In this document: piece after piece, positions 16,735 to 63,447 of the stretch | Layout of the letters: each line of letters starts with the position of its first letter | Position numbering within the stretch: position 1 is the stretch's first letter | Assembly (NCBI RefSeq): GCF_001428895.1 | Contig: NZ_LMJA01000004.1 | Location: 164,089 to 228,088 of the forward strand | Length of the DNA stretch: 64,000 nt | Reading direction: 5' to 3' | Origin: Mycobacterium sp. Root265 | GTDB lineage: Bacteria > Actinomycetota > Actinomycetes > Mycobacteriales > Mycobacteriaceae | The notes under the pieces: generated by a model | Seen by the model: only the letters and a program-made list of their open reading frames with translations | Told to the model about the DNA's origin: nothing | Database searches by the model: none | Program-made: the position numbers and the translations under genes

Positions 16735-17514
16735 ATGACACTGGAACCGTTGAAGGTGGACGCCGAGATGCTCGGCGCGGCGGGGCAGCGGCTGTTGACG
16801 GCGGCCCAGGGCCTGCCCGATGCGCCCGAGGCGTTCACCCCCGCGTATGGATCGGATGCGTTGTCGCAGGCGTTGTCGACCGATGTGCCCAAGGCCGAGG
16901 CCCCGATCATCGAGGGTCTGCCGCCGTTGAAGCAGTCCGCCATCGGGACCGCGGAGTCCGTCGTGGAAGCGGCCCGACGGTATCTGAGCGCCGATTCGCA
17001 CCTCAAGAGCAAGATCGAAGAGACCATGAATCAGCCCGCCGGAGGTGGTTCATCGGCCGGTGGCGGTGGATTCGCCTCCCCGGCAATGGGTTCCGGCGGT
17101 GGCGCTGCGGCCGGTGCGGCTGCTGCCGCAGCGGGAGCTTCTGCGGCCGGAGGCGTAGGCAACGCCGGCGGCGGCATGGGAGCCATGGGCGGGATGATGG
17201 GCATGCCCATGCAGATGGCCCAGCAAGCCGGCCAGATCCCGCAGCAGATCGGCGGCATGGCCGGGTCGTTACCGCAGTCTGCGATGCAGGGTGCGCAGCA
17301 GGTGGGTGATCAGGTCAAACAGATTGTCGAGCAGTTCAGCGATAAAGAGCCCGGCGAGAAGGACGAAGCGGCTGAGCCCGGCGGGAAGCACCGCGCCGAG
17401 GAGCAAGCTGCCGGTGCCGCACCGGGACAGGCCGACGGCGAGCGCGAGCCGGCGGCGCCCGCTTCACCTTCGCCGAAGCCGGCCACTCAAGCGGATCCGA
17501 CGATCAACTTGTAG
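16735..17514 (+). CDS. EspC-like type VII secretion-associated protein
   Basis: 259 residues. The N-terminal about 100 residues form a helical region like the DUF2580/EspC family of ESX-1-associated proteins, starting LKVDAEMLGAAGQRLL and containing a YxxxD-type motif (RRYLSADSH), the general type VII secretion signal. A central low-complexity Gly/Ala/Met stretch follows (about 105-170), then a Gln-rich part and an acidic/Pro-rich tail. A GGGAGGGGG ribosome-binding site precedes ATG 16735. It converges on a minus-strand gene for a WxG-type protein with only 11 bp between. Secretion is predicted from the motif only; no ESX core genes are in the window. Confidence 0.75.
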   Translation: MTLEPLKVDAEMLGAAGQRLLTAAQGLPDAPEAFTPAYGSDALSQALSTDVPKAEAPIIEGLPPLKQSAIGTAESVVEAARRYLSADSHLKSKIEETMNQPAGGGSSAGGGGFASPAMGSGGGAAAGAAAAAAGASAAGGVGNAGGGMGAMGGMMGMPMQMAQQAGQIPQQIGGMAGSLPQSAMQGAQQVGDQVKQIVEQFSDKEPGEKDEAAEPGGKHRAEEQAAGAAPGQADGEREPAAPASPSPKPATQADPTINL

Positions 17515-17525
17515 TACTGGCTGGG

Positions 17526-19835
17526 TCAGCTCACCATCGCGGCGAGCGCATCGGCGCTGAGCACACTGATGTGTTGCCAGTAAATCCATTCCGCGATCGC
17601 GGCCCGCTGTAGTTCGGCGTCTTGCGCGTTGTGGGCGCGGAACAGTGCCACATTCTGCAGGTGATCGGCGTAGGCAACCATCGCCTTCAGATGTGCGCCG
17701 GCGCGATCCGGATTGGCGCTCATCAGCGGCTTGCAGACCTCCAGCAGCAGGTTGATCCTGTTGTCGGCCGGTGGCGTGTTGTTCGCGGGTGCCGGCGGCA
17801 GCAGTTCGGTCAGACCGGTGGCATTGATACCGGCGAGCTTGCTCGCGACTTCGGGTGCGATGACCTCTAACCGGCTGCGGCCCTGCATCTTTCCACTGTC
17901 AGGCATATCGTCGGGTGTAATGATGTCCCGCGCGGCGCCGAGATCGAAACCTTTGAGATTCTCCTCGGTGCCGGCCACGGCCTGCAGGGTGACATTGTGG
18001 TGGCGCGCCCATTCCTGGACTGCCAGTAGGGGATAGGTGGCCCAGGTGCCGCGGGTCTGGGCGGGAATCGACTCGTCCGCCGTGACCATGCGGACCTGTT
18101 CGGGCAGGTGTACGTGTTCGGGGATGTAGGCCAGGCCGTAGTTGTTGGCGGTCAGGATCTGTCCGTCGGAGGTGACGGCGGTGATCCAGAACAGGCTGGG
18201 GTCGGTGATGTCGACGTTGAGGGCGGCGGCGATGTGGCGGGCGAGTTGGCGGGGGTTGGGTCCCTTGCGTCGCATCGCGCCCGCGGTGGCGGCGGCAGCG
18301 ATGGCATCGCGTTCTGCGCGGGCGGCCGAGATCGGCACTGGCGCAGCAGCTCCACCGGCAGCGCCCTGGCTGGTAGAAGCGGGGGCGACGGCGGGGCCGA
18401 CGGGTCCAGCGCCGGGTGGCACGGGTGCGGCGGGTGCCGGGGTGGACGGGTTGCCCAGCGGCATGGGTGGGGCACCGGTCGGTGCGGCGGGCGCCGGTGG
18501 TGCTGTCGGAGCAGGGGCACTGGTCGCCGGTGCGCTGTGGTTGGTGGCCGCGGCGGGTGATGTGGCGCTGGAAGTGTCCGGTTGTTGGTAGACGGGTGCA
18601 GCCGGTTGGGGCGGCGGCGCTGAAGGACTGAGCGGAGTTTGATTCAGCGGCATCGGGTTGGCGTTCGCGGCCTTGGTGGCGTCAGTGAAGCCCTTCTGGA
18701 AGTCCTGCTGCGGAGTGCTGACCGGGGCCGGGCCAGAGCCCTGGCCTGGGCCCGCCGTAGCCGCGGGTGCTTGGGGGCCTCCGCCGCCGGGTCCGCCGCT
18801 GGGACCTTGAGTGCCCCCGATGCTTGGGCCGGGGCCGCCTCCGGTGCCGCCCTTGCCGCCTCCCGTGGAGACCGGCGTGGCCGGTTGGCCAGTTGACGGC
18901 GCAATAGGCCTCGGCGGAGATCCGGGGGTCGGCGTTGGGGAACCTAGCGGCGCGGCTGGTGGAGGGCCGTAGGTTCCTAATCCGGACTGATTATCGCCTT
19001 GTGACGAGGGGGCGGGCGGCGGCGCTGGTGACGCGCCGGGCGCATCAGCCGGAGGCGTGTTAGATCCCAGGCCAGTCTTGCTGTCTCCATCAGGCGAGTT
19101 GGCCGGCGGTGGAGGCGATGCTTCTGGTGTGTCATTCGGGGCCGAACCAGGTGCAATTCCTGATTTGATATCGCCTGTCTGGCTTATCGCTGCTGGCGGT
19201 GCCGAATTGGTGACGGGGCTCCGATTTCCGACGGCATTCGACCGGGTAGGAGGGTTTGAAATAGGTAGAGATGGGTTTGGTGGAATCGACTCGGGTTTCA
19301 GCAACTGATCCAGGCCGCGTTGAAATTGCTCATCCGAGACACGCCAGTCCGCGAACCGCGCGGTAGTTGCTGCGGCTGCGACATCGGCAACATTCTGCTC
19401 GTGTGCCTTCGTTACAATTTGATCGATTTGTTGTTGTCGAACTTCGGGCTTGATGCTGGTTGCTTCTAACTTTGCAATTTCGCTTTCGGCGGTTACTACT
19501 CGCTCGAAGATCTCGATTTTTGTCGAAAGTATATTGCCGAACTGCGTGTTCAGCCATGAAATTGCAGTAACAAGCGCGCGTTGTTGTTCAGCCATAAGTG
19601 TTGATTGCGCAGCGACCGCATTTCCGCCCGCCGCTGCGCCGCTTCCAGCCCAAATTGCGCCCGAGGTAATCTCTGCTTTCTCGTGCAGCCATGCCTCATG
19701 TTGCTGCGATAAATTTCGGAGCAAATCGGTGAGTGCCTGTCCGCGCTGTAAAAATGCTTGTTCGTCGACTTCAGGCCATCCATCGGGGCTGAGCATCTGC
19801 TCGGCATACTCGCCTGGCGGTTTTGCGAAGCCCAT
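17526..19835 (-). CDS. Rv3899c/Rv2082-like proline-rich protein, putative type VII substrate
   Basis: 769 residues in three parts. The N-terminal helical domain (about 1-180) has a WxG motif (IWAGSG) between helices, the hairpin form typical of type VII substrates. A long Pro/Ala/Gly/Ser-rich linker follows (about 185-505). The C-terminal domain (about 505-769) starts AARAERDAIAAAATAGAMRR and includes DPSLFWITAVTSDGQILTANNYG, recognised from the mycobacterial Rv3899c/Rv2082 family. The function is unknown. The DNA for the N-terminal domain is clearly poorer in G+C than the rest (28 G/C of 60 at 19441-19500), whereas the C-terminal part resembles the host genome, suggesting a mosaic gene. It is 8 bp downstream of the membrane protein gene at 19844 and probably co-transcribed. 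Confidence 0.78.
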   Translation of the reverse strand: MGFAKPPGEYAEQMLSPDGWPEVDEQAFLQRGQALTDLLRNLSQQHEAWLHEKAEITSGAIWAGSGAAAGGNAVAAQSTLMAEQQRALVTAISWLNTQFGNILSTKIEIFERVVTAESEIAKLEATSIKPEVRQQQIDQIVTKAHEQNVADVAAAATTARFADWRVSDEQFQRGLDQLLKPESIPPNPSLPISNPPTRSNAVGNRSPVTNSAPPAAISQTGDIKSGIAPGSAPNDTPEASPPPPANSPDGDSKTGLGSNTPPADAPGASPAPPPAPSSQGDNQSGLGTYGPPPAAPLGSPTPTPGSPPRPIAPSTGQPATPVSTGGGKGGTGGGPGPSIGGTQGPSGGPGGGGPQAPAATAGPGQGSGPAPVSTPQQDFQKGFTDATKAANANPMPLNQTPLSPSAPPPQPAAPVYQQPDTSSATSPAAATNHSAPATSAPAPTAPPAPAAPTGAPPMPLGNPSTPAPAAPVPPGAGPVGPAVAPASTSQGAAGGAAAPVPISAARAERDAIAAAATAGAMRRKGPNPRQLARHIAAALNVDITDPSLFWITAVTSDGQILTANNYGLAYIPEHVHLPEQVRMVTADESIPAQTRGTWATYPLLAVQEWARHHNVTLQAVAGTEENLKGFDLGAARDIITPDDMPDSGKMQGRSRLEVIAPEVASKLAGINATGLTELLPPAPANNTPPADNRINLLLEVCKPLMSANPDRAGAHLKAMVAYADHLQNVALFRAHNAQDAELQRAAIAEWIYWQHISVLSADALAAMVS

Positions 19836-19843
19836 TGCTGACT

Positions 19844-20974
19844 CTATTTTCCTGTGGCCGCGCAGGCGTTGAAAACGATGAAGTTTGCATACGAGGCGGT
19901 TGCGGAAAGGTAGCTGTCGGCCGAAGTGTAGCTAGGGATCGATTCGGTATAGGCACGGAAATACTGAGCTGACAGAGTTGCGAAATCCATCAGAATGGGA
20001 TTCCCGCTGCGTGCGCCAAGCGCTTGGATGGTATCCGCATAAGCAAGCATCTTCGATGCAGCGTCTTCCATGACTGCTCGGCGCTCTGGCGTCCATTCGG
20101 TGGCTGGAGTACCGCCGTCACTCTCGCGCCAGGATTTGGTGTCGTCGTCAAACTTGTCGGAGGCCGAAGTCCACTCCGCGCACACCGTGTTTCCGGAGGT
20201 CGGTAAAAACATAGCGGGGCTAGCCGGATCTCCAATCGGAGCAAGTTTGGTTGGAGCTTCACCAGCAGTTACAAGGGGGCCTCGGGTGGCCGCAGAACGA
20301 TAGTCGATTGTCGCACATATCGTTACAACGGCGCCGGAGGTATCGCTAGCGGTCACGGCGAGAGAATTGTCTCCAACGGTGTATGTGGGGATGCTGTCTG
20401 CGTAAGCGCGCCAGTATGCAATCGACTGCTCATATAATTCTCGCATAACACGATTTGGCGTCATTTTGGCAAGTTGTACCGTCTGGTCTGCGGCGCGGCG
20501 CATCGCAGTTGCAATTTCGTCGTGGAGTGTCCGTTGTTCCGGCGACCAAGACGATGCGGGCAATGAGTAATCGCGTTCTCCCCATCCTTTTCGCTGCTGG
20601 TCGACCAGCGAGTCATTAATCGGTCGCCACGGGTCACAGGTCGGATCCTCAGTAATTATCCCAACCGGCCCAGTGTCGTTCGCACTCGCAATCTCACCCG
20701 CTGCCGGCGGGTTCCCGGTGGCCGTCTGCGTGGTGCCGCCGCCACCGTCCCGCGTGAAAAGCAGTGTGGCGCCCACGGATATGGCGATCACCAGTAGCAC
20801 TGCGACGCCGATCAACAGCCACTTCAGATTGTTGTTCTTTGGCGGCTGTGGTGGCGGACCCCAACCCTGCTGCGGCGCCCATTGCCCGGGCCCGTACGGC
20901 GGCTGTCCCTGGCCATAGGGCGGCTGCGGTGGACCCCAATTGCCCGGCGGCGGTGGATTCGTCACTGGCGCCAC
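19844..20974 (-). CDS. membrane-anchored protein with duplicated extracellular domain
   Basis: 376 residues: a Pro/Gly/Gln-rich cytoplasmic tail (about 1-47), one TM helix (about 49-72, WLLIGVAVLLVIAISVGATLLF), and an exported region made of two similar units. Unit 1 includes SWSPEQRTLHDEIATAM and YADSIPTYTVGDNSLAVTAS; unit 2 includes EWTPERRAVMEDAASKM and YTESIPSYTSADSYLSATAS. Each unit has a pair of Cys, probably disulfides. It precedes the Rv3899c-like gene as its M. tuberculosis neighbours do (Rv3900c/Rv2083 position, from memory). Low-GC codons dominate much of the gene, suggesting recent acquisition or a distinct lineage. The function is unknown. Confidence 0.75.
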   Translation of the reverse strand: MAPVTNPPPPGNWGPPQPPYGQGQPPYGPGQWAPQQGWGPPPQPPKNNNLKWLLIGVAVLLVIAISVGATLLFTRDGGGGTTQTATGNPPAAGEIASANDTGPVGIITEDPTCDPWRPINDSLVDQQRKGWGERDYSLPASSWSPEQRTLHDEIATAMRRAADQTVQLAKMTPNRVMRELYEQSIAYWRAYADSIPTYTVGDNSLAVTASDTSGAVVTICATIDYRSAATRGPLVTAGEAPTKLAPIGDPASPAMFLPTSGNTVCAEWTSASDKFDDDTKSWRESDGGTPATEWTPERRAVMEDAASKMLAYADTIQALGARSGNPILMDFATLSAQYFRAYTESIPSYTSADSYLSATASYANFIVFNACAATGK

Positions 20975-51754: not shown

Positions 51755-51856
51755 GTGCACTTTTCTGTATCTCGACCAGGTGCAATGCAGGGGACAGCGT
51801 CGTTCCGGGTGCTGCGGCCACGCCGACACGGTGTGAAAGCAGGTATGCATTGGTGA
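51755..51856 (+). CDS. 33-residue small ORF, translationally coupled to the next gene
   Basis: GTG 51755 is preceded by GGAGG at 51741-51745 with a 9-base spacer, the best ribosome-binding site in the region. It encodes 33 residues, basic in the middle (RVLRPRRHGVK) and ending MHW. Its TGA overlaps the GTG of the large membrane protein as GTGA, whereas that large gene has no good ribosome-binding site of its own. It may be a leader peptide controlling operon translation or a genuine small protein. No homologue is known to me. Confidence 0.6.
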   Translation: MHFSVSRPGAMQGTASFRVLRPRRHGVKAGMHW

Positions 51857-53979
51857 GCGTGGCGATCCCGGCCCGGCAAGCGCACGAGCAGACGCCGGGT
51901 CCGGAACCGGATCCACATATCCATCGATTTCCGAGAACACGATTACTGAGCGGGGTCGGCGCGATGCCGACCTTTTTGCTGTTGGTGTCACTGTTGTCGG
52001 CCGCGACGCTGTTGTTGTTGCGGGCGCCGGTCGCACCGCAGGTTCCCGATACCCTGCCCGGAGAGCTCCGGGCCGAGGCCAACCGTGTGGCAACCGCCTA
52101 CCTCGCGCCGGCGGACCAGCTGGCCAGTACCGCCGCGACCGATCACCTGGCGATCGCGTCCAAGAAACGCGGGGCGCTGCTGCGGCTTTCCCGTGCCAAC
52201 CCCGACGTCGACGGCCTGGCCCTGATCGACCGGGCGACGGGCAAGGTGCTGACCAAGCGGGGCGACTCCATGTCGGTTCCCGCGGTGCTGCCCGCACCGC
52301 AGGACGGCCCGGCAGTGAGCATCATCGATGACGATCTGGTGGTGGCGATCCCGGTCTCGACGGACCGGACCCTGATCGGCTCGCTGTCGGCACGGCCACC
52401 GCGGCTGCCCGGCGCGCCGCCGGGGCAACGTGTCCTCATCACCGGCAGCGACGGTGCGATGCTCGCCGAGTCCACCGGTCGTCCCGTCGTGCCGCCCGCA
52501 CTGGTCCAATCGGTCGCCGGCACCACCGCCCGTGGTGAATCCGGTTTCTCCGTGGATGATTCCCGTCTCGCGGAATCATCCAGCGGGGGGATCCTCGCCG
52601 TTCCGGGCAGGGCGCAGGCGTTGCCGGATCCGGTGGCGGTCGTCGGTGGGGTGCCGCTGCACGGCGTTGCCGAGCGCAGCGGCCTGTCGGCGCTCATCGC
52701 ACGGAACGTACCGGTCACCTCCAGCGCGATGACGAGTCCGGGACGCGTCGCGGCCATCGCGGTCGCCTCGGGGGGTGTCCTCGCGTTCATCCTGCTGCAG
52801 CTGTTGCTCGTCCGGCCGGTCCGGCGGTTGCGCCGCGATGTCGATCGGGTGGTCGCCGATGTCGACGCCGCCCGCGAGCCCACCGCCGGCATCCGCCGAT
52901 CGAGGCTGCGTCAGGTCGATCGCATCGCCCGGTCCGCGGCGCAGCTACCGCTGACCGTCGACAAACACATCCCCAAACGCCGGCTCGCGATTCCCGGCAC
53001 CGCCCTCCACGTCCTGGTGGGCACGCTTTTCATCGCTGCGCTGGGACTGGGTTTCGCATCGATCGGCGCGCACGAATCGGCCCGCACCGATGCGCTCACC
53101 GAACGCAGCAGAACCATGCTGGAGAAGACCGCGGGCGCCCTGGAGGGCACCCTCACCGAGGGGCTGGCTGCGGTGCAGGCCGCTGCGGTGCCGAAAATCG
53201 GTGAGGTCGATTCCGACTGGGCCCATGTGGTCACCGAGTTGCATGCCACCCGTCCGATCTTCCGCTCGGTGTACGTGCGGGACGCGGCGCAGCACATCGT
53301 GGCAGTCGCCGGTGAGGCACCACAGGCCGATGCCGCGCCGTCGGCACCATTGGCGCAACTCAACACCTCGGGGCCGGAGCCGATCCTCACCGCGGCCGAA
53401 CGCACCCACGACGGGCGCTTCACGGTGGTCGCCGAGTACGACGCGCGGGCCCTGAACAATGTGCTGCGCAGCGCCGACAGCCCGACCGAGGTGTACGACG
53501 ACGGGTCCCGTACGGTGCTGGGCTCCGACGGCTACATCTCGTTCAGCCCACTCGATGACCCGGTGTTGCGGCGCAACGCTTCCGAGGCAGGCGTGGCGGC
53601 GCATGCCGCCGTGCAGGACGTCGCCGGTGCCGAACAACTGGTCGCCGGTCAGCGCATCGGCCGGTCCGAGGCGACCGCTGCGCTCGGATGGACCGTGCTG
53701 CAGCACCGCGAGGTCACCGCCGCGCGCTACACTGTCGATCCCGTCGGACGCGCCGCGACCGTTGTTATCGGCGCCACCGCACTGGTGGCGGTGGGGCTGC
53801 TGCTGTGGAGTCACAACGCGATCGTCGGGCCGCTCGGACGGGTGCACCACTGGCTCACCGGAATCGTGGCCTCACCGAAGGACCGTCCCGCCGCCGGGCC
53901 GCCGCCGCGACGCCTCGACGAGGTCGGTGCGGTGATGGCCGGGCTCAACCACTGCATGAATCGGGGTGATCGACGATGA
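51853..53979 (+). CDS. four-TM membrane protein with duplicated extracellular sensor-like domains
   Basis: 708 residues with a repeated plan: TM1 (about 35-57), exported domain 1 (about 60-298), TM2 (about 299-320), HAMP-like basic linker (RPVRRLRRDVDRVVADVDAA), TM3 (about 384-406), exported domain 2 (about 407-632), TM4 (about 634-653), and a HAMP-like end (VGPLGRVHHWLTG). Both exported domains look like Cache/PAS-type sensor domains (inferred). No kinase, cyclase or other output domain follows. GTG 51853 is chosen for its GTGA coupling with the small ORF. It overlaps capB by 4 bp, so it likely senses or scaffolds polymer synthesis. Confidence 0.75.
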   Translation: MSVAIPARQAHEQTPGPEPDPHIHRFPRTRLLSGVGAMPTFLLLVSLLSAATLLLLRAPVAPQVPDTLPGELRAEANRVATAYLAPADQLASTAATDHLAIASKKRGALLRLSRANPDVDGLALIDRATGKVLTKRGDSMSVPAVLPAPQDGPAVSIIDDDLVVAIPVSTDRTLIGSLSARPPRLPGAPPGQRVLITGSDGAMLAESTGRPVVPPALVQSVAGTTARGESGFSVDDSRLAESSSGGILAVPGRAQALPDPVAVVGGVPLHGVAERSGLSALIARNVPVTSSAMTSPGRVAAIAVASGGVLAFILLQLLLVRPVRRLRRDVDRVVADVDAAREPTAGIRRSRLRQVDRIARSAAQLPLTVDKHIPKRRLAIPGTALHVLVGTLFIAALGLGFASIGAHESARTDALTERSRTMLEKTAGALEGTLTEGLAAVQAAAVPKIGEVDSDWAHVVTELHATRPIFRSVYVRDAAQHIVAVAGEAPQADAAPSAPLAQLNTSGPEPILTAAERTHDGRFTVVAEYDARALNNVLRSADSPTEVYDDGSRTVLGSDGYISFSPLDDPVLRRNASEAGVAAHAAVQDVAGAEQLVAGQRIGRSEATAALGWTVLQHREVTAARYTVDPVGRAATVVIGATALVAVGLLLWSHNAIVGPLGRVHHWLTGIVASPKDRPAAGPPPRRLDEVGAVMAGLNHCMNRGDRR

Positions 53980-55163
53980 CCTTTCTCTTCAGCTTCTACC
54001 TGACCGGCTGCCTTGCCATGCTGGTCGCCGGCCTCGCCGAACAACGCGCGCATCACAAGAGCCTGCACAGCATCCCGCATCGGATCGTGATCAACGGGAT
54101 CCGCGGCAAGAGTTCGATCACCCGGCTGTGTGCCGGTGCGCTGCGCGGCGGCGGGGTCACCACGGTCGCCAAGACCACCGGCACCGCAGCACGTTTCATC
54201 GGGCCCGACGGTGTCGACGAACCCATCTACCGCAAATTCAACCTGGCCAATGTGATCGAACAGGTGGCGATCGTGCGCCGTGCGGCGGCTTTCCGGCCCG
54301 AAGCGCTCGTCATCGAATGCATGGCGGTGCTGCCGGACCTGCAGGAGATCAACGAGCGCAAGCTGATTCACTCGACGATCTGCGTCATCTGCAATGTGCG
54401 GGAGGATCATCTGGCCGAGATGGGGCCGACGTTGCCGGATATCGCGCGTTCGTTGTCGCGGTCGATGCCGACCGGCGGGGTGTGCGTCACCGCGGAGAAG
54501 GAGCAGATCGCGGTGCTGCGCGAGGAGGCGCGACGGCGGAAGTGCGAACTGATCCAGGTCGACGCCGACGAGATCGACGACGAGACGGTCGCCATGTTCC
54601 CCTTCATCACGTTCAAGGAGAACATCGCGATCGCGCTCGCGGTGGCAGGAATGTGCGGCATAGAGCGGGAATCGGCCCTGCAGGGCATGATCACCTCGCC
54701 ACCTGACCCGGGCACCGTCGCCGTGGACGACTACGAGGTGGACGGTCGGCGGCTGTCGTTCGCGAACCTGTTCGCCGCGAACGACCCGTCATCGACCCTG
54801 ATGAACATCGAGCAACTCACCGACCGCGGCCTCATCGATCGTCCGCTCAACATCGTGATCAACTGCCGGCCGGACCGGGTCGAGCGCAACGGTCAGATGG
54901 GGGCGCTCACCGGGGCGCTGGAACCCGACAGAATCATCCTGATCGGCGAGCCGACGCGCTCGGCTCGTGTCACCGTTCCACCCGAATTGACGGACAAGAT
55001 CAGGGATTTCGGGAGTCGGCCGGACTACGACGACCTGTTGGGCGATGTGCTGACCGAGAACGGCAGTGGATCTGTCATCACCATCGGCAACATCCACGGT
55101 CAGGGCGAGGTGTTGCTCGAGCATGTCCGGAAGCTCCCACGAGCCATGGAGGATGCATGCTGA
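53976..55163 (+). CDS. capB: CapB/PgsB-like poly-gamma-glutamate synthase ligase
   Basis: 395 residues. A short N-terminal membrane segment (FLFSFYLTGCLAMLVAG) is followed by a Mur-ligase-like ATPase domain: P-loop INGIRGKSS (about 40-47), KTTGTAARFIGPDG, NVREDHLAEMGPT, and PLNIVINCRPDR in the C-terminal part. These are the features of CapB/PgsB, which activates and adds glutamate to a gamma-linked polyglutamate chain. Overlaps both neighbours (ATGA with the sensor gene; 7 bp with capC). The polymer product in this organism is unknown. Confidence 0.88.
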   Translation: MTFLFSFYLTGCLAMLVAGLAEQRAHHKSLHSIPHRIVINGIRGKSSITRLCAGALRGGGVTTVAKTTGTAARFIGPDGVDEPIYRKFNLANVIEQVAIVRRAAAFRPEALVIECMAVLPDLQEINERKLIHSTICVICNVREDHLAEMGPTLPDIARSLSRSMPTGGVCVTAEKEQIAVLREEARRRKCELIQVDADEIDDETVAMFPFITFKENIAIALAVAGMCGIERESALQGMITSPPDPGTVAVDDYEVDGRRLSFANLFAANDPSSTLMNIEQLTDRGLIDRPLNIVINCRPDRVERNGQMGALTGALEPDRIILIGEPTRSARVTVPPELTDKIRDFGSRPDYDDLLGDVLTENGSGSVITIGNIHGQGEVLLEHVRKLPRAMEDAC

Positions 55164-55639
55164 ACGGAACTCTCGGGCCCGAGGTCGCGACGATCGCGCT
55201 GGCGATCGGATTGATGTTCGCCTTCGTGTGCTACCTGGTCACCAACTTGTCTCCGGGTGGCATGATCACGCCCGGCTGGTTGGCCGTGACGGTGACCGAA
55301 GATCCACGCAAGGTGATCGTCATCGCCGGTGTCACCGTGTTGACCTACCTGTCGACTCTGCTGCTGCAGCGCGGTGTGATCCTCTACGGCAAACGGCTTT
55401 TCGCCGCGGTCATCATGGTGAGCGTCTTGTTCTCCACCGGGCTTTTCCTGTTGGTGTACAACGACTATCCGCTGCTCTTCGTGCATCAGACTCTCGGGTT
55501 CATCATCCCGGGTCTGATCGCCTACCAGCTGGTGCGGCAGCCGCGGCTGGCGACCATCGCCGGCACCACCGCGGTCAGTCTGGCCACCTACGGAGTACTG
55601 GCCAGCGGGATACTGCTCAACCTGGTGCCCACCGGCTGA
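55157..55639 (+). CDS. capC: CapC/PgsC-like membrane subunit
   Basis: 160 residues and about five hydrophobic helices. The segments LSPGGMITPGWLAV, LQRGVILYGKRLFA and HQTLGFIIPGLIAYQL are the typical CapC/PgsC landmarks. CapC forms the membrane synthase with CapB. ATG 55157 is preceded by GGAGG with 4-base spacing and overlaps capB. CapA/PgsA and CapE/PgsE were not found in the window. Confidence 0.88.
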   Translation: MLNGTLGPEVATIALAIGLMFAFVCYLVTNLSPGGMITPGWLAVTVTEDPRKVIVIAGVTVLTYLSTLLLQRGVILYGKRLFAAVIMVSVLFSTGLFLLVYNDYPLLFVHQTLGFIIPGLIAYQLVRQPRLATIAGTTAVSLATYGVLASGILLNLVPTG

Positions 55640-55662
55640 CTCGACAGCGAGGAGACGTTGCA

Positions 55663-56667
55663 ATGGGTGTACGAGAACTGCACCACCGGACCGTCAGGCA
55701 GATCGCGTTCACGGCCGCCGGAGTGTTGATCGGCGTCGTCGGCATCGTGGTCGGGAGCGTGCGTGAGCCGGCGCCGGCAGCGCCTGTTCCCGCCGCCGCA
55801 CCGGTCACCGAATCACGACCCGTCACAGGTGAATTCGACTTCCGCAGACTGGCCGATCCGCCGCGCACCGTGGTGACCGACGGTGCCGGGCGGGTGGTCG
55901 CGACTCTCACCGACGCGGCACGCACCGTCAACCTGCTCGGGCCGAGCCGGCGGTTCAGCGAGCCCGCAGGCACTGGCGTGGGAGTCACCTCGCAGACCTG
56001 GGTGCGGATGTTGCCCGGCCCGTGGTCGGCAGGCGCAGAACGCGAACCGTGGTTCCGGCCATGGTTGGACGCGGCGCTGCGCGATCGCGGGCCCGATGTG
56101 CTGGCGGTGGCGGCGCAACACCTGCCCGGCGCCGGCGACGACGCGCGCTTCGGTGTGTTCGATACCGATGGCGACGGGCGCGGCGACCACTCGGATTTCT
56201 TTGACTATCTCGGGCAGCCGTGGACCTATGAGGACGGCAGGGTGGAACAACCCGACCCCGCCCAGAGCGGTTCGGTGGACGCATCCGGATTCGTGCGGCT
56301 GGTGTTCGGGTACCGGTCGGGTATGCCGGTCCGTACCGATGGTGACGAGCAGAAAGGGGCCATCCCGCGCAGCACCGACGACATCGCGGTGGACGGACCG
56401 GGCGCGGTGATCGTGCCAGACCGGCAGTCCAGGGTCACCGATTTCGGCGCCATTCAGGCAGGCGATCTCGTCTTCTTCGACACCGATCCGGATCGCCGGG
56501 CCGATCTGGTGGGCATCTGCATGGGCCGCGACGAGGCCGGTCACTTGCGATTCATCGCCAGCCGCCAGTCCGCCGACGGTCCCACCATGGGCGATGCCGG
56601 TGGCGCGTCGATCCTCGACGGCCAGGGCGAATACCCGTCGGCATTCCGCAGTGTGAAGCGGCTGTGA
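55663..56667 (+). CDS. membrane-anchored NlpC/P60-like protein with altered active site
   Basis: 334 residues: an N-terminal TM anchor (about 14-33), a Pro/Ala tether, a central domain with a calcium-loop-like FDTDGDGRGDHSDFF (about 166-180), and a C-terminal region with the NlpC/P60 layout: DASGFVRLVFGYRSG, then IPRSTDDIA, then IQAGDLVFFDTD, then VGICMG. In active peptidases the first motif is DCSGFV; here codon GCA gives Ala in place of the Cys, and the usual His before GIYLG is absent. It therefore may bind rather than cut a peptide or polyglutamate. AGGAG precedes ATG 55663. Confidence 0.72.
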   Translation: MGVRELHHRTVRQIAFTAAGVLIGVVGIVVGSVREPAPAAPVPAAAPVTESRPVTGEFDFRRLADPPRTVVTDGAGRVVATLTDAARTVNLLGPSRRFSEPAGTGVGVTSQTWVRMLPGPWSAGAEREPWFRPWLDAALRDRGPDVLAVAAQHLPGAGDDARFGVFDTDGDGRGDHSDFFDYLGQPWTYEDGRVEQPDPAQSGSVDASGFVRLVFGYRSGMPVRTDGDEQKGAIPRSTDDIAVDGPGAVIVPDRQSRVTDFGAIQAGDLVFFDTDPDRRADLVGICMGRDEAGHLRFIASRQSADGPTMGDAGGASILDGQGEYPSAFRSVKRL

Positions 56668-57578
56668 CCTCTGTGCCCGGGCATCTCGATCGCCGCCAGG
56701 TGCTGCGCGGGCTGACCGGCTGCGCATCGGTCGGGCTGCTCGCCGCTTGCGGGATGCGGCCCGAGGCGCATGCGCCGCCCGGACTGGACCGCCAGATCGA
56801 CGACCTCACCGAGCGGCTCAATCCCCGCCAGCAGTACCGCCCGCCCTCGGATGCCGAGGCACGCCGGGCCGTCGAGGCCGTCGAGCAATTGACCGCCGCT
56901 GAACTGGACGCCGGGCGAGCCGGTCTCACCGCATTGGGGTTCACCGTCGACTCTCTCCACGACGCTGCCGCACAACGCGATTGTCTGGTCGCCGCCGGCG
57001 AGAGCCATGGCCACCGGACCTGGGGGACGCTCGTCGTGGCTGCCGACGCCGACCGTCCCGACGTCCTCGTCGAGGTGCCGCATCCACGGGCGGATCTGGA
57101 CACCGAGCGCATCGGTCTGGCCATGTTCCGTGCGCTGCCCCGCTCGGGACTGCTCCTGGCCGGTGCGCACCGGCGCGCCGCCGACGGAGCGGCAGATGTT
57201 GCGCACCAATCAGATTCGCTGTTCCACGCGCTCGCCGTGGAACTGGGCCGCCAAGGTGCGCTCCAGGTTCAGTTGCACGGGTTCGCCGATGCCAGCCTGC
57301 CCGGCAAGGATGTGGTGATCTCCAGCGGCAGGGCCCGGGTCGGGGCGCGCGCCGAACGCCTCGCCGACGCACTCGACGATCTCGGCCTGGACGTCGGCCG
57401 CGCCTGGCGGGAGCGGTGCGCCGGTCTGGAAGGCAGAAGCAACGCTCAGGGTAGAGCCGCCGCGCGGCACGATCTGGATTTCGTGCACCTGGAAATGAAC
57501 CATCGCACCCGGATGGACGCGCGGCGGCGCAGTGCCGTCGTTGGTGCCGTCGCCGCTGCGCTCAACGGCACGCAGTGA
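56664..57578 (+). CDS. Tat-exported lipoprotein, putative zinc-dependent (poly-gamma-)glutamyl hydrolase
   Basis: 304 residues. The N-terminus has a twin-arginine motif DRRQVLRGLTG and a lipobox LLAAC (Cys about 29), so it is probably a Tat-exported lipoprotein. The mature domain has VEVPHPRADLDTERIG, LLAGAHRRAADG, DVAHQSDSLFHAL, QLHGFAD and a final DFVHLEMNHRTRMD; the clustered His/Asp/Glu residues resemble zinc-dependent N-formylglutamate amidohydrolase/PghP-type gamma-PGA hydrolases, though the similarity is weak. GTG 56664 overlaps the preceding stop (GTGA). As the last gene of the capBC operon it may release or shorten the polymer. Confidence 0.65.
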   Translation: MTSVPGHLDRRQVLRGLTGCASVGLLAACGMRPEAHAPPGLDRQIDDLTERLNPRQQYRPPSDAEARRAVEAVEQLTAAELDAGRAGLTALGFTVDSLHDAAAQRDCLVAAGESHGHRTWGTLVVAADADRPDVLVEVPHPRADLDTERIGLAMFRALPRSGLLLAGAHRRAADGAADVAHQSDSLFHALAVELGRQGALQVQLHGFADASLPGKDVVISSGRARVGARAERLADALDDLGLDVGRAWRERCAGLEGRSNAQGRAAARHDLDFVHLEMNHRTRMDARRRSAVVGAVAAALNGTQ

Positions 57579-60215: not shown

Positions 60216-61009
60216 GTGTGTTGCTGCGCCTGCTGACGCTGGCGCCGGACGGTGCGGACCGGTGGCGCGGACCCGGGGCCGGCCCGCAGGGCAAGCGGTC
60301 CTTCGGGGGTCTGTTCGCCGCGCAGAGTCTGGCCGCGGCGTGCGCCACGGTCGACGCCGGGAAACGGCCCACCAACCTGCACCAGCAGTTCCTGCGCGGC
60401 GGCGAGGCCGGTGACGACTCGGACTACCAGGTCGAACGCGTCTATGACGGCCGGACCGCGGCGTCGCGCCGGGTGCAGACCCGCCAGCACGACCGGCTCC
60501 TCAACATCGCAACGGTGTCGTTCTCCGCGCCGCTGCCCGGCCCCGAACACGGGACCCGGCAGTCGATGCCGCCGCACCCGGACACCCTGGACCGCACCGG
60601 GCCGCCCGGCCCGGCACCGTCACTTCCGCTGGACGAACTCGACATCCGCGTGCAGGACGGGCACGACGGCGGCGAGTTCGTGCGGCGGCTGTGGTGGCGC
60701 ACCACCGTCGGGCTGCCCGACGACCCGCTGATCCACACCCTGGTCGCGGTGTACGTCACCGACCTCTACGGCGTCGACCCGATACTGCAGGTGCACGGAT
60801 TCTCGATGGCCGACCGCACGCACCGCAGCGGGACCACCGATTCGTCGATCTGGTTTCATCAGCCGCTGCGGGCCGATCAATGGAATCTGCTGGAATCCCG
60901 GTCTCCGGCGGCCGCCCGCGGGCGCGGCGTGATGTCGGCGTCGCTCGTGCGCGCCGACGGCGTGATCGCCGCAACCCTGGTCCAGGAAGGCATCATCGCC
61001 GACCGCTGA
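60212..61009 (+). CDS. TesB-like acyl-CoA thioesterase
   Basis: 265-residue double hot-dog thioesterase. N-terminal RSFGGLFAAQSLAAAC is the first hot-dog helix, and HQQFLRGGEAGD the typical N-terminal strand. The C-terminal hot dog has SIWFHQPLRADQWNLLESRSP and GVMSASLVRADGVIAATLVQEG with the catalytic Asp/Gln positions. GTG 60212 overlaps the CoA-transferase stop. The last 133 bp overlap the minus-strand gene on the other strand. Confidence 0.92.
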   Translation: MSVLLRLLTLAPDGADRWRGPGAGPQGKRSFGGLFAAQSLAAACATVDAGKRPTNLHQQFLRGGEAGDDSDYQVERVYDGRTAASRRVQTRQHDRLLNIATVSFSAPLPGPEHGTRQSMPPHPDTLDRTGPPGPAPSLPLDELDIRVQDGHDGGEFVRRLWWRTTVGLPDDPLIHTLVAVYVTDLYGVDPILQVHGFSMADRTHRSGTTDSSIWFHQPLRADQWNLLESRSPAAARGRGVMSASLVRADGVIAATLVQEGIIADR

Positions 61010-63447
61010 TGGAACCGGCTGCGCAGCCGCGCCATCGCCTGGGCCAGCACCACACCGAACACCAGTGCCGCCAGCACACCCAGCAGACGGTGTTCGCCGA
61101 ACAGCGGATAGATCTGGAAATGGCTCAGGTAGACGTACAGCGAGGCGTCGGCCAGTGCGGCCACCACGCCGGTCAGCAGCACCGGGCAGCGGATCGACGG
61201 CAACCAGATCATCACCGCGATCCCGGCGAACACCAGCGCTTCCCGGATATGGTCACCGAAGTAGCCGTACAGGCCGACCGCCAACAGCGCGGTGATGGCG
61301 GCGCGCTGCCAGGCCGTCGATGACTTCGCCACGGCCCAGCCGACCGCGAAGAACCAGAACGCCAGCATGCTGAACCAGGCATCCTCGCCCATGTCCGGTC
61401 CCGGGGCGTCATAGCGCAGGGCCACTCCCGCGGCCAGGAACACCAACGCGAACGCGAACGGTCGGCGGCGCTCCAGCCGGTCCACCCCGGGTACCCACAG
61501 CAGCAGGGTCAGCAGCACCAGGATCCAGACCAGCACTTCGATGAACCACAGCCGGCCCGCGGTCATACTGTCGAACGGACCGAGAATCTTGTTGGCCAGT
61601 AACAGATTCGACCACTGATAGTCATCGCTGAAGGTCATGGTGACCGCCACCCAGGCGATCGCGGGCAGCGCGATCCAGGTGATCGTGCTGCGCAGGTGCC
61701 GGATCCGGTCGGGGCGTGGTACGGAGGTCAGACAGAACCGGCCGAAGTTGTAGCCGGCGACGCCGAGCAGGATGTGCGCCCCACCCCACATCTCGAACAG
61801 TTCGGCATGGGATCCGACGATGAGCACGATCGCCACCGCCCGCAGCGCCACGCTGGTCTCCAGCGTCGAGGTCCAGCGGCGCTTGCGGGTGCTGAGTTGC
61901 TCCAGTTCGCGCAGTGGCATCCGATGCCACTCGGGTGGGAGTTCGTGCAGCACCCGTTCGATGCGCACCGACATCGTCACGTAGCTCAGCGAATTGCCGC
62001 CCAGGTCCACGAAGCTGGCACCGGGGTCGATGTCTGCGGGATTCAGGTGCAGCACGTCGGCGAAGACCCCGCGCAGCGCGGTCGATGCCGCCGTTTCGGA
62101 ACGCAGTGCAAGTACCGCAGGATAGTCGGGTTTGCCCGACGGCAGCATCGGTAGCTCGTCGACGCTGACCGCCCGCACCGCACCGGCGGGCAGCCCGGTG
62201 ATCTCGGTGGCGGCGCTGCGCACCGCCTGCGCGTCGTGTATTGCGGCGATGACGAGGACGTCGTCATCGGTGGTGCACAGCGCGCAGATACCGCGCTCGC
62301 GCAGAGTGGATTCCACCCGTTGCAGGTCGATGCGCAGGCCGAACAGCTTGGCGAACCGGTTGGCGCGGCCCACCACTTCGAAGAGCCCGTCCGCGCCGCG
62401 TCGGGCCAGATCCCCGGTGCGCAGTTCATCGGTGCCGGCGGGCGCGGAGAGATCGGCGGCGTTGCGCGCGTAGCCCATCATCACATTGGGCCCCTGGTAG
62501 ACGAGTTCGCCGATCTCATCGTCCGGACTGTGCTGATTCCCCGTCGCTCCGCTCGCCCCACCATCGATCCACAGTCGCCCGCCGGGGATGGCCCGGCCGA
62601 TCGCCTCGGCCCGTGTCCCGGCGAGTTCGGGCGGCAGATAAGCCATTCGGGCGGTGGCCTCGGTCGCGCCGTACATGACGAACAACTGCCAGCCGCGACG
62701 CTGCCCGAGCGCGGCGAATTGGCGCACCCGCTCGGCTTCCAGTCGCCCGCCGGCCTGGGTGATGTAGCGCAGGTGCGGCAGACGCAGGGTGTCGAAGCCG
62801 ATCCGGTCCAGCAGGTCGAAGGTGTAGGGCACACCCGCGAACGAGGTGCCCTGGTGGCGGATGAGCAGCTCCCAGAACGCGTCATCGATGACCGAGAGAT
62901 CGGTGAGGATCAACGCCGCGCCGCGCAGCAGGTGGCTGTGGATGACCGACAGCCCGTAACAGTAGGACATCGGTAGTGTCGTTGCCGCGCAGTCGGTATC
63001 GCGGATCTCGAGGTATTCGGCGATGGATTCGGCGTTGACCAGCAGATTGGCCGCCGACAAGCGGACCAGTTTGGGTGAGCCGGTGCTGCCCGAGGTGGAC
63101 AGCAGCAGCGCCAGGTCGGGGTGCAGGTCGTGATGCTGGGCGCCGCGGTGGTGCACGCCGCCGGCGTCGATGACGACATCGGGGCGGTAGGTGTCGATTA
63201 GGTCGGCGTGATCACTGCCGGGTGGCACCGGCAGCACCACGTGCCCGCCGGCCATGGCGCCGAGATAGCGTGTCAGGGTGGCGATGTCATTGTGCGTCTC
63301 CAGCAGGATCAGCTTGCGGCCACCGGCGAATTCTGCTGTGGCGCAGTCAACCCGGTCGGCGAGTTGTCGGTAACTGAGCGTCTGGTCGCGGGTGTGCACC
63401 GCGGGCCGGTCGCCGTGCGCCCGCAGGTGCGCAACGAGGTGTCTCAT
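60877..63447 (-). CDS. adenylation-PCP-membrane acyltransferase fusion protein
   Basis: 856 residues in three modules. (1) AMP-forming adenylation domain (about 1-455): STSGSTGSPK, VMYGATEATARMAYLP, TGDLARRGADGLFEVVGR, and PMLPSGKPDYPAV. (2) Peptidyl/acyl carrier domain (about 460-530) with the phosphopantetheine site DLGGNSLS. (3) A multi-helix acyltransferase_3-like domain (about 545-830), starting RAVAIVLIVGSHAELF. The layout suggests an activated amino or acyl group loaded on the carrier and transferred to a membrane glycan or lipid, like a one-chain Dlt system (inference). The start overlaps the ABC ATPase stop (ATGA). The last 44 codons overlap the thioesterase gene antisense. Confidence 0.82.
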   Translation of the reverse strand: MRHLVAHLRAHGDRPAVHTRDQTLSYRQLADRVDCATAEFAGGRKLILLETHNDIATLTRYLGAMAGGHVVLPVPPGSDHADLIDTYRPDVVIDAGGVHHRGAQHHDLHPDLALLLSTSGSTGSPKLVRLSAANLLVNAESIAEYLEIRDTDCAATTLPMSYCYGLSVIHSHLLRGAALILTDLSVIDDAFWELLIRHQGTSFAGVPYTFDLLDRIGFDTLRLPHLRYITQAGGRLEAERVRQFAALGQRRGWQLFVMYGATEATARMAYLPPELAGTRAEAIGRAIPGGRLWIDGGASGATGNQHSPDDEIGELVYQGPNVMMGYARNAADLSAPAGTDELRTGDLARRGADGLFEVVGRANRFAKLFGLRIDLQRVESTLRERGICALCTTDDDVLVIAAIHDAQAVRSAATEITGLPAGAVRAVSVDELPMLPSGKPDYPAVLALRSETAASTALRGVFADVLHLNPADIDPGASFVDLGGNSLSYVTMSVRIERVLHELPPEWHRMPLRELEQLSTRKRRWTSTLETSVALRAVAIVLIVGSHAELFEMWGGAHILLGVAGYNFGRFCLTSVPRPDRIRHLRSTITWIALPAIAWVAVTMTFSDDYQWSNLLLANKILGPFDSMTAGRLWFIEVLVWILVLLTLLLWVPGVDRLERRRPFAFALVFLAAGVALRYDAPGPDMGEDAWFSMLAFWFFAVGWAVAKSSTAWQRAAITALLAVGLYGYFGDHIREALVFAGIAVMIWLPSIRCPVLLTGVVAALADASLYVYLSHFQIYPLFGEHRLLGVLAALVFGVVLAQAMARLRSRFHQRSAMMPSWTRVAAITPSARTSDADITPRPRAAAGDRDSSRFH

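What the first reader, a model, noticed from the sequence alone, without database searches (positions are those of the whole stretch)
51755..57578. CapBC-centred operon: possible gamma-polyglutamate-type envelope system in a mycobacterium
Six ORFs are chained by overlaps: small ORF, double-sensor membrane protein, CapB-like ligase, CapC-like subunit, NlpC/P60-like protein and Tat lipoprotein. CapB and CapC are the minimal polymer synthase of gamma-PGA capsules. The usual CapA/PgsA partner is missing and is replaced by four unfamiliar proteins, two of which are exported and one of which may hydrolyse gamma-glutamyl bonds. Poly-glutamate in the mycobacterial wall has been reported, but a dedicated operon like this is not familiar to me.
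Basis: partly seen in the sequence, partly recalled or inferred. Interest (0 to 1): 0.85.

Follow-up and report, generated by a model that had tools for sequence, protein, structure and literature searches.

The report
Mycobacterial polyglutamate-type synthase operon lacking CapA
A mycobacterium carries a rare copy of a gene cassette, found in many soil actinobacteria, that looks built to make a gamma-linked glutamate polymer at the cell surface; it lacks the usual partner CapA, and its supposed cutting enzyme has lost the residues such enzymes need.

Summary
The five-gene operon is real (51853-57578, +): a 4-TM sensor-like protein, CapB/PgsB, CapC/PgsC, an NlpC/P60-fold protein and a Tat-type lipoprotein. 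CapB passes the PgsB equivalog cut-off (362.5 vs 222.7 bits); CapC passes Pfam's cut-off but not NCBIfam's. The sixth, 33-aa ORF is unsupported. No CapA reaches the cut-off in the 6.67 Mb genome.

The accessory genes form a conserved actinobacterial cassette. In 80 capB loci (the best 80 of 351 found), the sensor gene adjoins capB in 80, the NlpC gene follows in 76, the lipoprotein gene is near in 62 and capA in 31. In 197 sampled genomes of the class, capB and the lipoprotein family occur in the same five. No library gave the lipoprotein family a significant match.

A full-length CapB match occurs in 1 of 298 sampled same-genus genomes. A second operon copy sits in another genus of the family (CapB 71% identical). 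In both, the NlpC protein lacks the catalytic Cys and His kept in 70 and 73 of 74 relatives, so the suggested hydrolase is probably a pseudoenzyme.

Best reading: a CapA-less gamma-polyglutamate synthase with a HAMP-type receptor as likely regulator. The polymer is untested. New variant of a known kind.

The parts
51853..53979 (+). Sensor-like membrane protein (708 aa): four hydrophobic segments (38-56, 302-320, 387-405, 634-652), read as TM - extracellular domain - TM - HAMP-like - TM - extracellular domain - TM - HAMP-like; no kinase or other output domain seen
   Evidence: ORF; hydropathy; at E up to 0.1 HAMP in 28 of 29 and dCache_1 in 15 of 29 aligned members, window member in neither; family profile matches solved HAMP domains (289-336), a rhodopsin transducer (634-700) and, weakly (E 0.0033), sporulation kinase D (403-530); within 400 bp upstream of capB in 80 of 80 loci
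53976..55163 (+). CapB/PgsB, Mur-ligase-type amide ligase (395 aa), N-terminal hydrophobic segment and P-loop-like NGIRGKSS
   Evidence: TIGR04012 362.5 bits, cut-off 222.7; PF08245 23.9 bits, just under its cut-off of 24; NGIRGKSS conserved in at least 95% of 80 relatives; hydropathy
55157..55639 (+). CapC/PgsC membrane subunit (160 aa)
   Evidence: PF14102 108.5 bits, cut-off 27; TIGR04011 73.3 bits, below its cut-off of 96.45
55663..56667 (+). NlpC/P60-fold protein with one N-terminal hydrophobic segment (334 aa from ATG 55663), lacking the catalytic Cys and His of its family and a conserved Ser at the presumed third position
   Evidence: PF00877 19.5 bits, cut-off 23; PF00877 matched by 29 of 29 aligned members at E up to 0.1; family Cys and His align with DCSG and HVGIY of solved NlpC/P60 enzymes; residue counts
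56664..57578 (+). Tat-type lipoprotein (304 aa; twin Arg and lipobox LAAC read by eye) of a family without annotation, with conserved H140, D144, E148, H181, H205, H275, E277
   Evidence: ORF; alignment A1; residue counts; no significant Pfam, PDB-sequence, PHROG or NCBIfam match; co-occurs with capB
51755..51856 (+). 33-aa ORF upstream of the sensor gene; unsupported, not counted as part of the system
   Evidence: GTG start behind GGAGGTGAAG; by eye no counterpart among small ORFs listed in L143, L003, L004, L036, L006

Best explanation
This is a CapA-less, actinobacterial-type gamma-polyglutamate (or gamma-oligoglutamate) synthase cassette. CapB, an ATP-dependent Mur-ligase-type enzyme probably held at the membrane by its N-terminal segment, and CapC polymerise glutamate through gamma-amide bonds and pass the chain outward. 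The translationally coupled 4-TM double-Cache/HAMP-type protein, in which no kinase was seen, most likely reads an external signal and acts directly on CapB-CapC, or helps the chain across in place of CapA. The NlpC/P60-fold protein is catalytically dead in this lineage and most likely binds the polymer or the wall as a scaffold. The lipoprotein, whose conserved His/Asp/Glu set looks like a metal site, is the likeliest enzyme that trims, releases or anchors the chain. Shown by sequence: gene order, family membership of CapB and (by Pfam) CapC, conservation of the cassette, absence of CapA over cut-off, loss of the NlpC Cys and His. Inferred: that the product is gamma-linked polyglutamate (about 0.7), that the sensor protein acts on the synthase (about 0.4), that the NlpC protein is a retained scaffold (about 0.5), that the lipoprotein is a hydrolase or transferase of the polymer (about 0.4).
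For: CapB passes the PgsB equivalog cut-off and CapC the Pfam cut-off. In the 80 loci kept of 351 relatives found: sensor gene directly upstream of capB on the same strand in 80, capC within 700 bp downstream in 76 (present in 80), NlpC gene in 76, lipoprotein gene in 62, capA in 31. In 197 sampled genomes of the class capB is in 5, the lipoprotein family in the same 5 only, the NlpC family in 4 of the 5 only. The lipoprotein and NlpC families also occur beside a second, distant capB type with tandem CapC domains (L144 and L145 respectively). No PF09587 over cut-off in this genome or in G387, which holds the closest copy found. NlpC Cys, His and a conserved Ser replaced in both the window and G387 copies, while both stay open and align over about 300 residues.
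Against: No polymer has been measured. CapC is under the NCBIfam PgsC cut-off. The window copy departs from family-conserved columns more than any other row for CapB (26 of 214), CapC (7 of 66) and the sensor (14 of 40), and ranks 5th of 75 for NlpC and 4th of 63 for the lipoprotein; this could mean a changed substrate or decay. No contact between sensor and synthase is shown. The lipoprotein family shows no detectable relation to PghP hydrolases (hhalign probability 0.2-0.3%), so its enzymatic role rests on residue conservation. In 20 of 23 tested genomes with the cassette a CapA-type protein exists somewhere. Lack of CapA is ordinary for the genus (1 of 21 same-genus genomes tested has one) and need not be a trait of the operon. 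Four of 80 loci lack the NlpC gene nearby and 18 the lipoprotein gene, so neither looks indispensable (a few of the 18 are on short contigs).
Confidence: 0.6

Rival explanations
1. The cassette makes a related but different product: short gamma-glutamyl tails on a wall or lipid precursor, or a chain of another amino acid, rather than a free or anchored polyglutamate.
For: CapB belongs to the Mur-ligase/FolC superfamily (PF08245 just under cut-off, TIGR01499 at 22.5 bits far under its cut-off), many of whose members add single residues (recalled); CapC is below the PgsC cut-off; the window CapB departs at 26 of 214 conserved columns; no CapA.
Against: CapB exceeds the PgsB equivalog cut-off by 140 bits; an adjacent CapC is present, which FolC-type and Mur-type ligases do not need (recalled).
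Confidence: 0.2
2. A transferred cassette in decay: no longer functional in this mycobacterium.
For: Full-length CapB match in only 1 of 298 sampled same-genus genomes; the window rows are the most divergent for CapB, CapC and sensor; NlpC Cys and His lost; in the closest relative found, G387, the sensor gene is split by transposase-like genes and its NlpC departs at 16 of 76 conserved columns.
Against: All five window ORFs are open, three of four junctions overlap; the CapB NGIRGKSS motif and 188 of 214 conserved columns are kept; the lipoprotein keeps the seven conserved His/Asp/Glu residues.
Confidence: 0.17
3. The NlpC/P60 protein is an active gamma-glutamyl hydrolase.
For: The family has the NlpC/P60 fold (29 of 29 members match PF00877 at E up to 0.1), and the catalytic Cys is kept in 70 of 74 other members.
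Against: In the window copy Cys216 is Ala and His291 is Leu; the G387 copy has Ser and Gln there.
Confidence: 0.03

Closest known systems
PgsBCA(E)/CapBCA(DE) gamma-polyglutamate synthases of Bacillus and others
   Same: CapB and CapC adjacent, in that order, overlapping; CapB within the PgsB equivalog model
   Different: No CapA/PgsA over cut-off in operon or genome; added sensor-type, NlpC-type and lipoprotein genes; CapE/PgsE and CapD not looked for
Actinobacterial loci annotated as HAMP protein, pgsB, PgsC/CapC, NlpC/P60 protein (e.g. Streptomyces plasmid NZ_CP109461.1)
   Same: Same gene families and order of the core four; this is the system to which the window belongs
   Different: No lipoprotein-family match in the stretch read of that record; elsewhere the lipoprotein gene mostly lies on the other strand; capA near in 31 of 80 loci; NlpC Cys kept in 70 of 74; 60-66% CapB identity to the window in the 80 loci
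Locus in G387, another genus of the same family (L143)
   Same: Same order, with the lipoprotein gene last on the same strand; NlpC Cys and His also lost; no CapA match in genome; CapB 71% identical
   Different: Sensor gene interrupted by transposase-like genes
PgdS, gamma-DL-glutamyl hydrolase of B. subtilis (role in PMC5751247 passages; its NlpC/P60 fold recalled)
   Same: An NlpC/P60-type protein beside a polyglutamate synthase
   Different: Catalytic Cys and His missing in the window copy
Mycobacterial poly-L-glutamate/glutamine layer linked to glnA1 (PMC3852478, search listing with start of abstract)
   Same: A glutamate-derived polymer in mycobacterial walls
   Different: Tied to glutamine synthetase in print; a CapB match at E 1e-20 is missing from 296 of 298 sampled same-genus genomes

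Membership tests
PgsBCA/CapBCA gamma-polyglutamate synthase | CapB/PgsB ligase | tested here: met
   TIGR04012 362.5 bits against a cut-off of 222.7
PgsBCA/CapBCA gamma-polyglutamate synthase | CapC subunit next to CapB (Pfam model) | tested here: met
   PF14102 108.5 bits, cut-off 27
PgsBCA/CapBCA gamma-polyglutamate synthase | PgsC equivalog (NCBIfam model) | tested here: not met
   TIGR04011 73.3 bits, cut-off 96.45
PgsBCA/CapBCA gamma-polyglutamate synthase | CapA/PgsA partner (in classical operons; accessory in the CapsuleFinder model, PMC5542703 passages) | tested here: not met
   Best PF09587 match in the genome 15.1 bits, cut-off 27; none at E 0.001
PgsBCA/CapBCA gamma-polyglutamate synthase | CapE/PgsE and CapD | not tested
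   No search was made
PgsBCA/CapBCA gamma-polyglutamate synthase | Production of gamma-linked polyglutamate | not testable with these tools
   Needs chemistry on a strain and a capB deletion
Actinobacterial sensor-capB-capC-nlpC-lipoprotein cassette (as defined here) | The same five families around capB | tested here: met
   All five in the window and in L143; all five, with capC within 700 bp, in 56 of 80 loci
NlpC/P60 cysteine peptidases (C40) | NlpC/P60 fold | tested here: inconclusive
   Window copy 19.5 bits, cut-off 23; best family member E 6.6e-10
NlpC/P60 cysteine peptidases (C40) | Catalytic Cys and His | tested here: not met
   Both absent in the window copy; Cys in 70 and His in 73 of 74 other members
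dCache/HAMP transmembrane receptors | Cache and HAMP domains by profile | tested here: inconclusive
   28 of 29 members HAMP, 15 of 29 dCache_1 at E up to 0.1, window copy neither; family profile matches solved HAMP domains
PghP-type gamma-PGA hydrolases (PF05908), considered for the lipoprotein | Detectable profile relation | tested here: not met
   hhalign probability 0.2-0.3%; no PF05908 match in 31 members at E up to 0.1
Mycobacterial poly-L-glutamate/glutamine system | Dependence on glnA1 | not tested
   Only the search listing of PMC3852478 was seen

The most novel reading that the evidence does not exclude
The cassette is a signal-gated surface-polymer machine: a two-sensor, two-HAMP membrane receptor without any kinase talks directly to the CapB-CapC synthase; the capB-linked lipoprotein is a new family of metal-dependent gamma-glutamyl hydrolase or transferase; and in mycobacteria the NlpC protein has been turned into a polymer-binding scaffold, giving a gamma-polyglutamate layer that my paper searches did not find described for this genus.
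Probability: 0.25. Interest if true: 0.78.

Novelty: new variant of a known kind. Interest (0 to 1): 0.5.

Why it matters
It would define a common actinobacterial form of the gamma-polyglutamate synthase, with two partners (a HAMP receptor without a visible output domain, and a lipoprotein family without annotation) whose roles can be tested in ordinary soil actinobacteria. For mycobacteria it would add a gene-encoded glutamate polymer beside the glnA1-linked poly-L-glutamate/glutamine layer already reported, and it gives a natural case in which no CapA was found in the whole genome.

Tried and rejected
Lipoprotein as PghP-type gamma-PGA hydrolase: the order of conserved His/Glu residues looked similar by eye, but hhalign of the lipoprotein family against 19 same-genus PghP-like domains gave 0.2-0.3% probability, no better than the NlpC and sensor families used as controls (0.1-0.2%). 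Rejected as shown homology. A first extraction of those domains misread the minus-strand loci and was redone.

NlpC protein as active hydrolase: rejected for the window copy.

Accessory genes as CapA replacements: weakened, because capA lies near in 31 of the 80 loci.

Small ORF as a leader peptide gene: no counterpart seen by eye in five relatives; a limited test.

Contamination or assembly artefact: unlikely. The operon lies inside a contig of 233,754 bases. Of eight same-genus genomes read beside DUF2469, lepB, rnhB and DUF2469 matched in 8 of 8; the downstream genes (CoA-transferase and thioesterase, with dienelactone hydrolase or the AMP-binding gene) were found within the fetched stretch in 2 of 8 (L174, L180) and not in 6; none of the eight showed the operon genes. 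Names by Pfam: RNase HII, DUF2469, dienelactone hydrolase, CoA-transferase, thioesterase; rplS and lepB are recalled names.

Plasmid origin: 9 plasmid records carry a CapB relative at E 1e-20, the best at 62.0% identity; no direct sign of transfer by plasmid.

Promoter and terminator scan: no promoter-like site; 4 terminator-like sites against 2.7 in shuffles; not informative.

Ancestry: a CapB tree of 41 rows (35 of the 80 loci, window, L143, four distant rows) joins window and L143 (SH-aLRT 97), next Actinomycetospora (90); a clade of window, L143 and the three Pseudonocardia loci that share the lipoprotein position is neither shown nor rejected (p-AU 0.52).
Full report
Observation. Five co-directional ORFs lie at 51853-57578. 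Three of the four junctions between them overlap by 4-7 nt; the NlpC gene most likely starts at ATG 55663, 23 nt behind capC. The 33-aa ORF at 51755-51856 has no counterpart that I could see among small ORFs listed around the sensor start in five relatives; the exact sensor starts there were not settled, so the ORF is unsupported rather than excluded.

Identity of the core. CapB scores 362.5 bits against TIGR04012, PgsB equivalog, cut-off 222.7, and 23.9 bits against the Mur ligase middle domain, just under its cut-off of 24. CapC scores 108.5 bits against PF14102, cut-off 27, but 73.3 against the PgsC equivalog, cut-off 96.45. phmmer with CapB found no solved structure at E up to 1.

CapA. 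The best PF09587 match in the 6,668,100-base genome is 15.1 bits, cut-off 27. A search of 24 chosen genomes at E 0.001 found none here or in G387; of 21 same-genus genomes in it, this one included, one has a match (G023); the other two hits were G400 and G413. [quoted passage not shown] So lack of CapA is notable but has precedent.

A conserved cassette. A scan of a collection of 84,980 species genomes (size as the tool states it) with six peptide patterns of CapB gave 351 relatives, of which the best 80 were kept: Streptomyces, Amycolatopsis, Micromonospora, Pseudonocardia, Kutzneria, Rhodococcus rhodnii and others, at 60-66% identity. tblastn with the window proteins found the partners in most of them, the sensor least often. 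With profiles built from these same loci, which leans towards finding members, the sensor gene lies within 400 bp upstream of capB on the same strand in 80 of 80, capC within 700 bp downstream in 76 (present in 80), the NlpC gene in 76, the lipoprotein gene in 62 and capA in 31; sensor, capC, NlpC and lipoprotein genes all present beside capB in 56. Some loci end at a contig end near the gene. Among the 80, the lipoprotein gene is on the capB strand only in three Pseudonocardia loci, as it is in the window and in L143. NCBI annotates a Streptomyces plasmid copy as HAMP protein, pgsB, PgsC/CapC and NlpC/P60 protein, with no lipoprotein-family match in the stretch read; in a second plasmid the lipoprotein-family gene is annotated hypothetical protein, beside a CapA family protein.

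Co-occurrence. In 197 sampled genomes of the class, capB (E up to 1e-20) occurs in 5, the lipoprotein family (E up to 1e-10) in the same 5 only, and the NlpC family (E up to 1e-20) in 4 of those 5 only. Three of the five are from one genus, so they are not five independent events; in one (G741) the lipoprotein match is in two pieces; and the tool scores a limited number of candidates a genome. A CapA-type protein somewhere in the genome: 20 of 23 genomes, reached through 24 of the 80 loci.

Distribution near the window. In the genus 2 of 298 sampled genomes match at E 1e-20: this one, and G025 with a partial 30% match and none of the partners in the 19 kb read. In the family 11 of 301 match at E 1e-50: this one, G387 at 71%, and nine at 35-47%. 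Of these nine, four were read further (L144-L147): each has two CapC matches in one ORF; L144 adds CapA and the lipoprotein, L145 CapA and the NlpC protein, and L146 and L147 none of these. The host is consistent with Mycobacterium: four PE-family matches over cut-off (the control rang in one of 14 genomes, Escherichia coli). In G387 the sensor match is split by two transposase-like genes with integrase core domains.

The NlpC protein. The family profile aligns its Cys and His with DCSG and HVGIY of solved NlpC/P60 enzymes. Among 74 other members the Cys is kept in 70 and the His in 73; a Ser at what I take, by eye, for the third active-site position is kept in 72. The window has Ala, Leu and Ala there; G387 has Ser, Gln and Met. 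Of 76 columns conserved in at least 90% of the others, the window departs at 12, one of them a gap and three of them these positions; by my own arithmetic about 0.003 by chance for three named columns and 0.02 for Cys and His alone, both chosen after the fact. Four other members have also lost the Cys (L027, L032, L046, L082), L046 the His too; on an NlpC tree of 36 rows parsimony needs two changes, also with the active-site stretches masked. G387 departs at 16 of 76 columns, several of them around the active site, so relaxed selection is not excluded.

The sensor protein. Four hydrophobic segments in the window and in 56 of 74 family members (13 have five, 4 three, 1 six). HAMP in 28 of 29 and dCache_1 in 15 of 29 aligned members at E up to 0.1, neither in the window copy. 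The family profile matches solved HAMP domains, a rhodopsin transducer and, weakly, sporulation kinase D. The window copy is the most divergent of 75 rows (14 of 40 conserved columns changed).

The lipoprotein. No Pfam, PHROG or NCBIfam family fits more than two of 31 members at E up to 0.1, and the few that do look like chance; the ten PDB sequences listed at E up to 10 start at 0.12. H140, D144, E148, H181, H205, H275 and E277 are kept in 60-62 of 62 others. A metal site is my inference. A relation to PghP was tested and not found.

Mechanism. The reading under Best explanation rests on the roles of CapB and CapC in Bacillus (PMC5751247 passages) and on gene context. Sensor gating, NlpC scaffolding and lipoprotein catalysis are inferences, with the odds stated there.

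Literature. Searches (open-licence PMC only; I saw listings and starts of abstracts, and not all papers counted were listed) showed no paper describing this cassette in actinobacteria or a CapBC operon in a mycobacterium. The capsule survey reports PGA loci in most phyla (PMC5542703, passages), so actinobacterial capBC as such is not new. PghP-like hydrolases in mycobacteria and streptomycetes are in print (PMC4497714, section 15).

Verdict.

Noticed in passing
G000:C22:248402-248869 (L097:1015-2082): A PghP-type poly-gamma-glutamate hydrolase domain (PF05908) fused behind a gamma-glutamylcyclotransferase-like domain (GGACT/AIG2) in this genome. A PF05908 match is present in 19 of 25 same-genus genomes tested, this one included; none of the other 18 had a CapB match at E 1e-20.
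   Followed up: partly
L144-L147 (G400, G413, G486, G591): A second CapB type in the family, with a gene holding two CapC matches in tandem; L144 and L145 also carry CapA and the lipoprotein or the NlpC protein.
   Followed up: partly
L143:4377-6873: Transposase-like genes, two with integrase core domains, interrupt the sensor gene of the closest relative locus.
   Followed up: partly
L183 (plasmid pCgly1 of Corynebacterium glyciniphilum): A plasmid typed as mobilizable carries pgsB, a gene annotated PgsC/CapC of 1,005 bases and a gamma-glutamyltransferase gene; my CapC profile did not match it at E 0.001.
   Followed up: no
window 60877-63447 (-): One ORF joins an AMP-binding domain, a phosphopantetheine carrier domain and a membrane acyltransferase domain; a 63% identical relative lies downstream of DUF2469 in G002.
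   Followed up: no
window 16735-20974: Long ORFs rich in Pro, Gly and Ala (two tested, no Pfam match), partly in a stretch of lower G+C.
   Followed up: no
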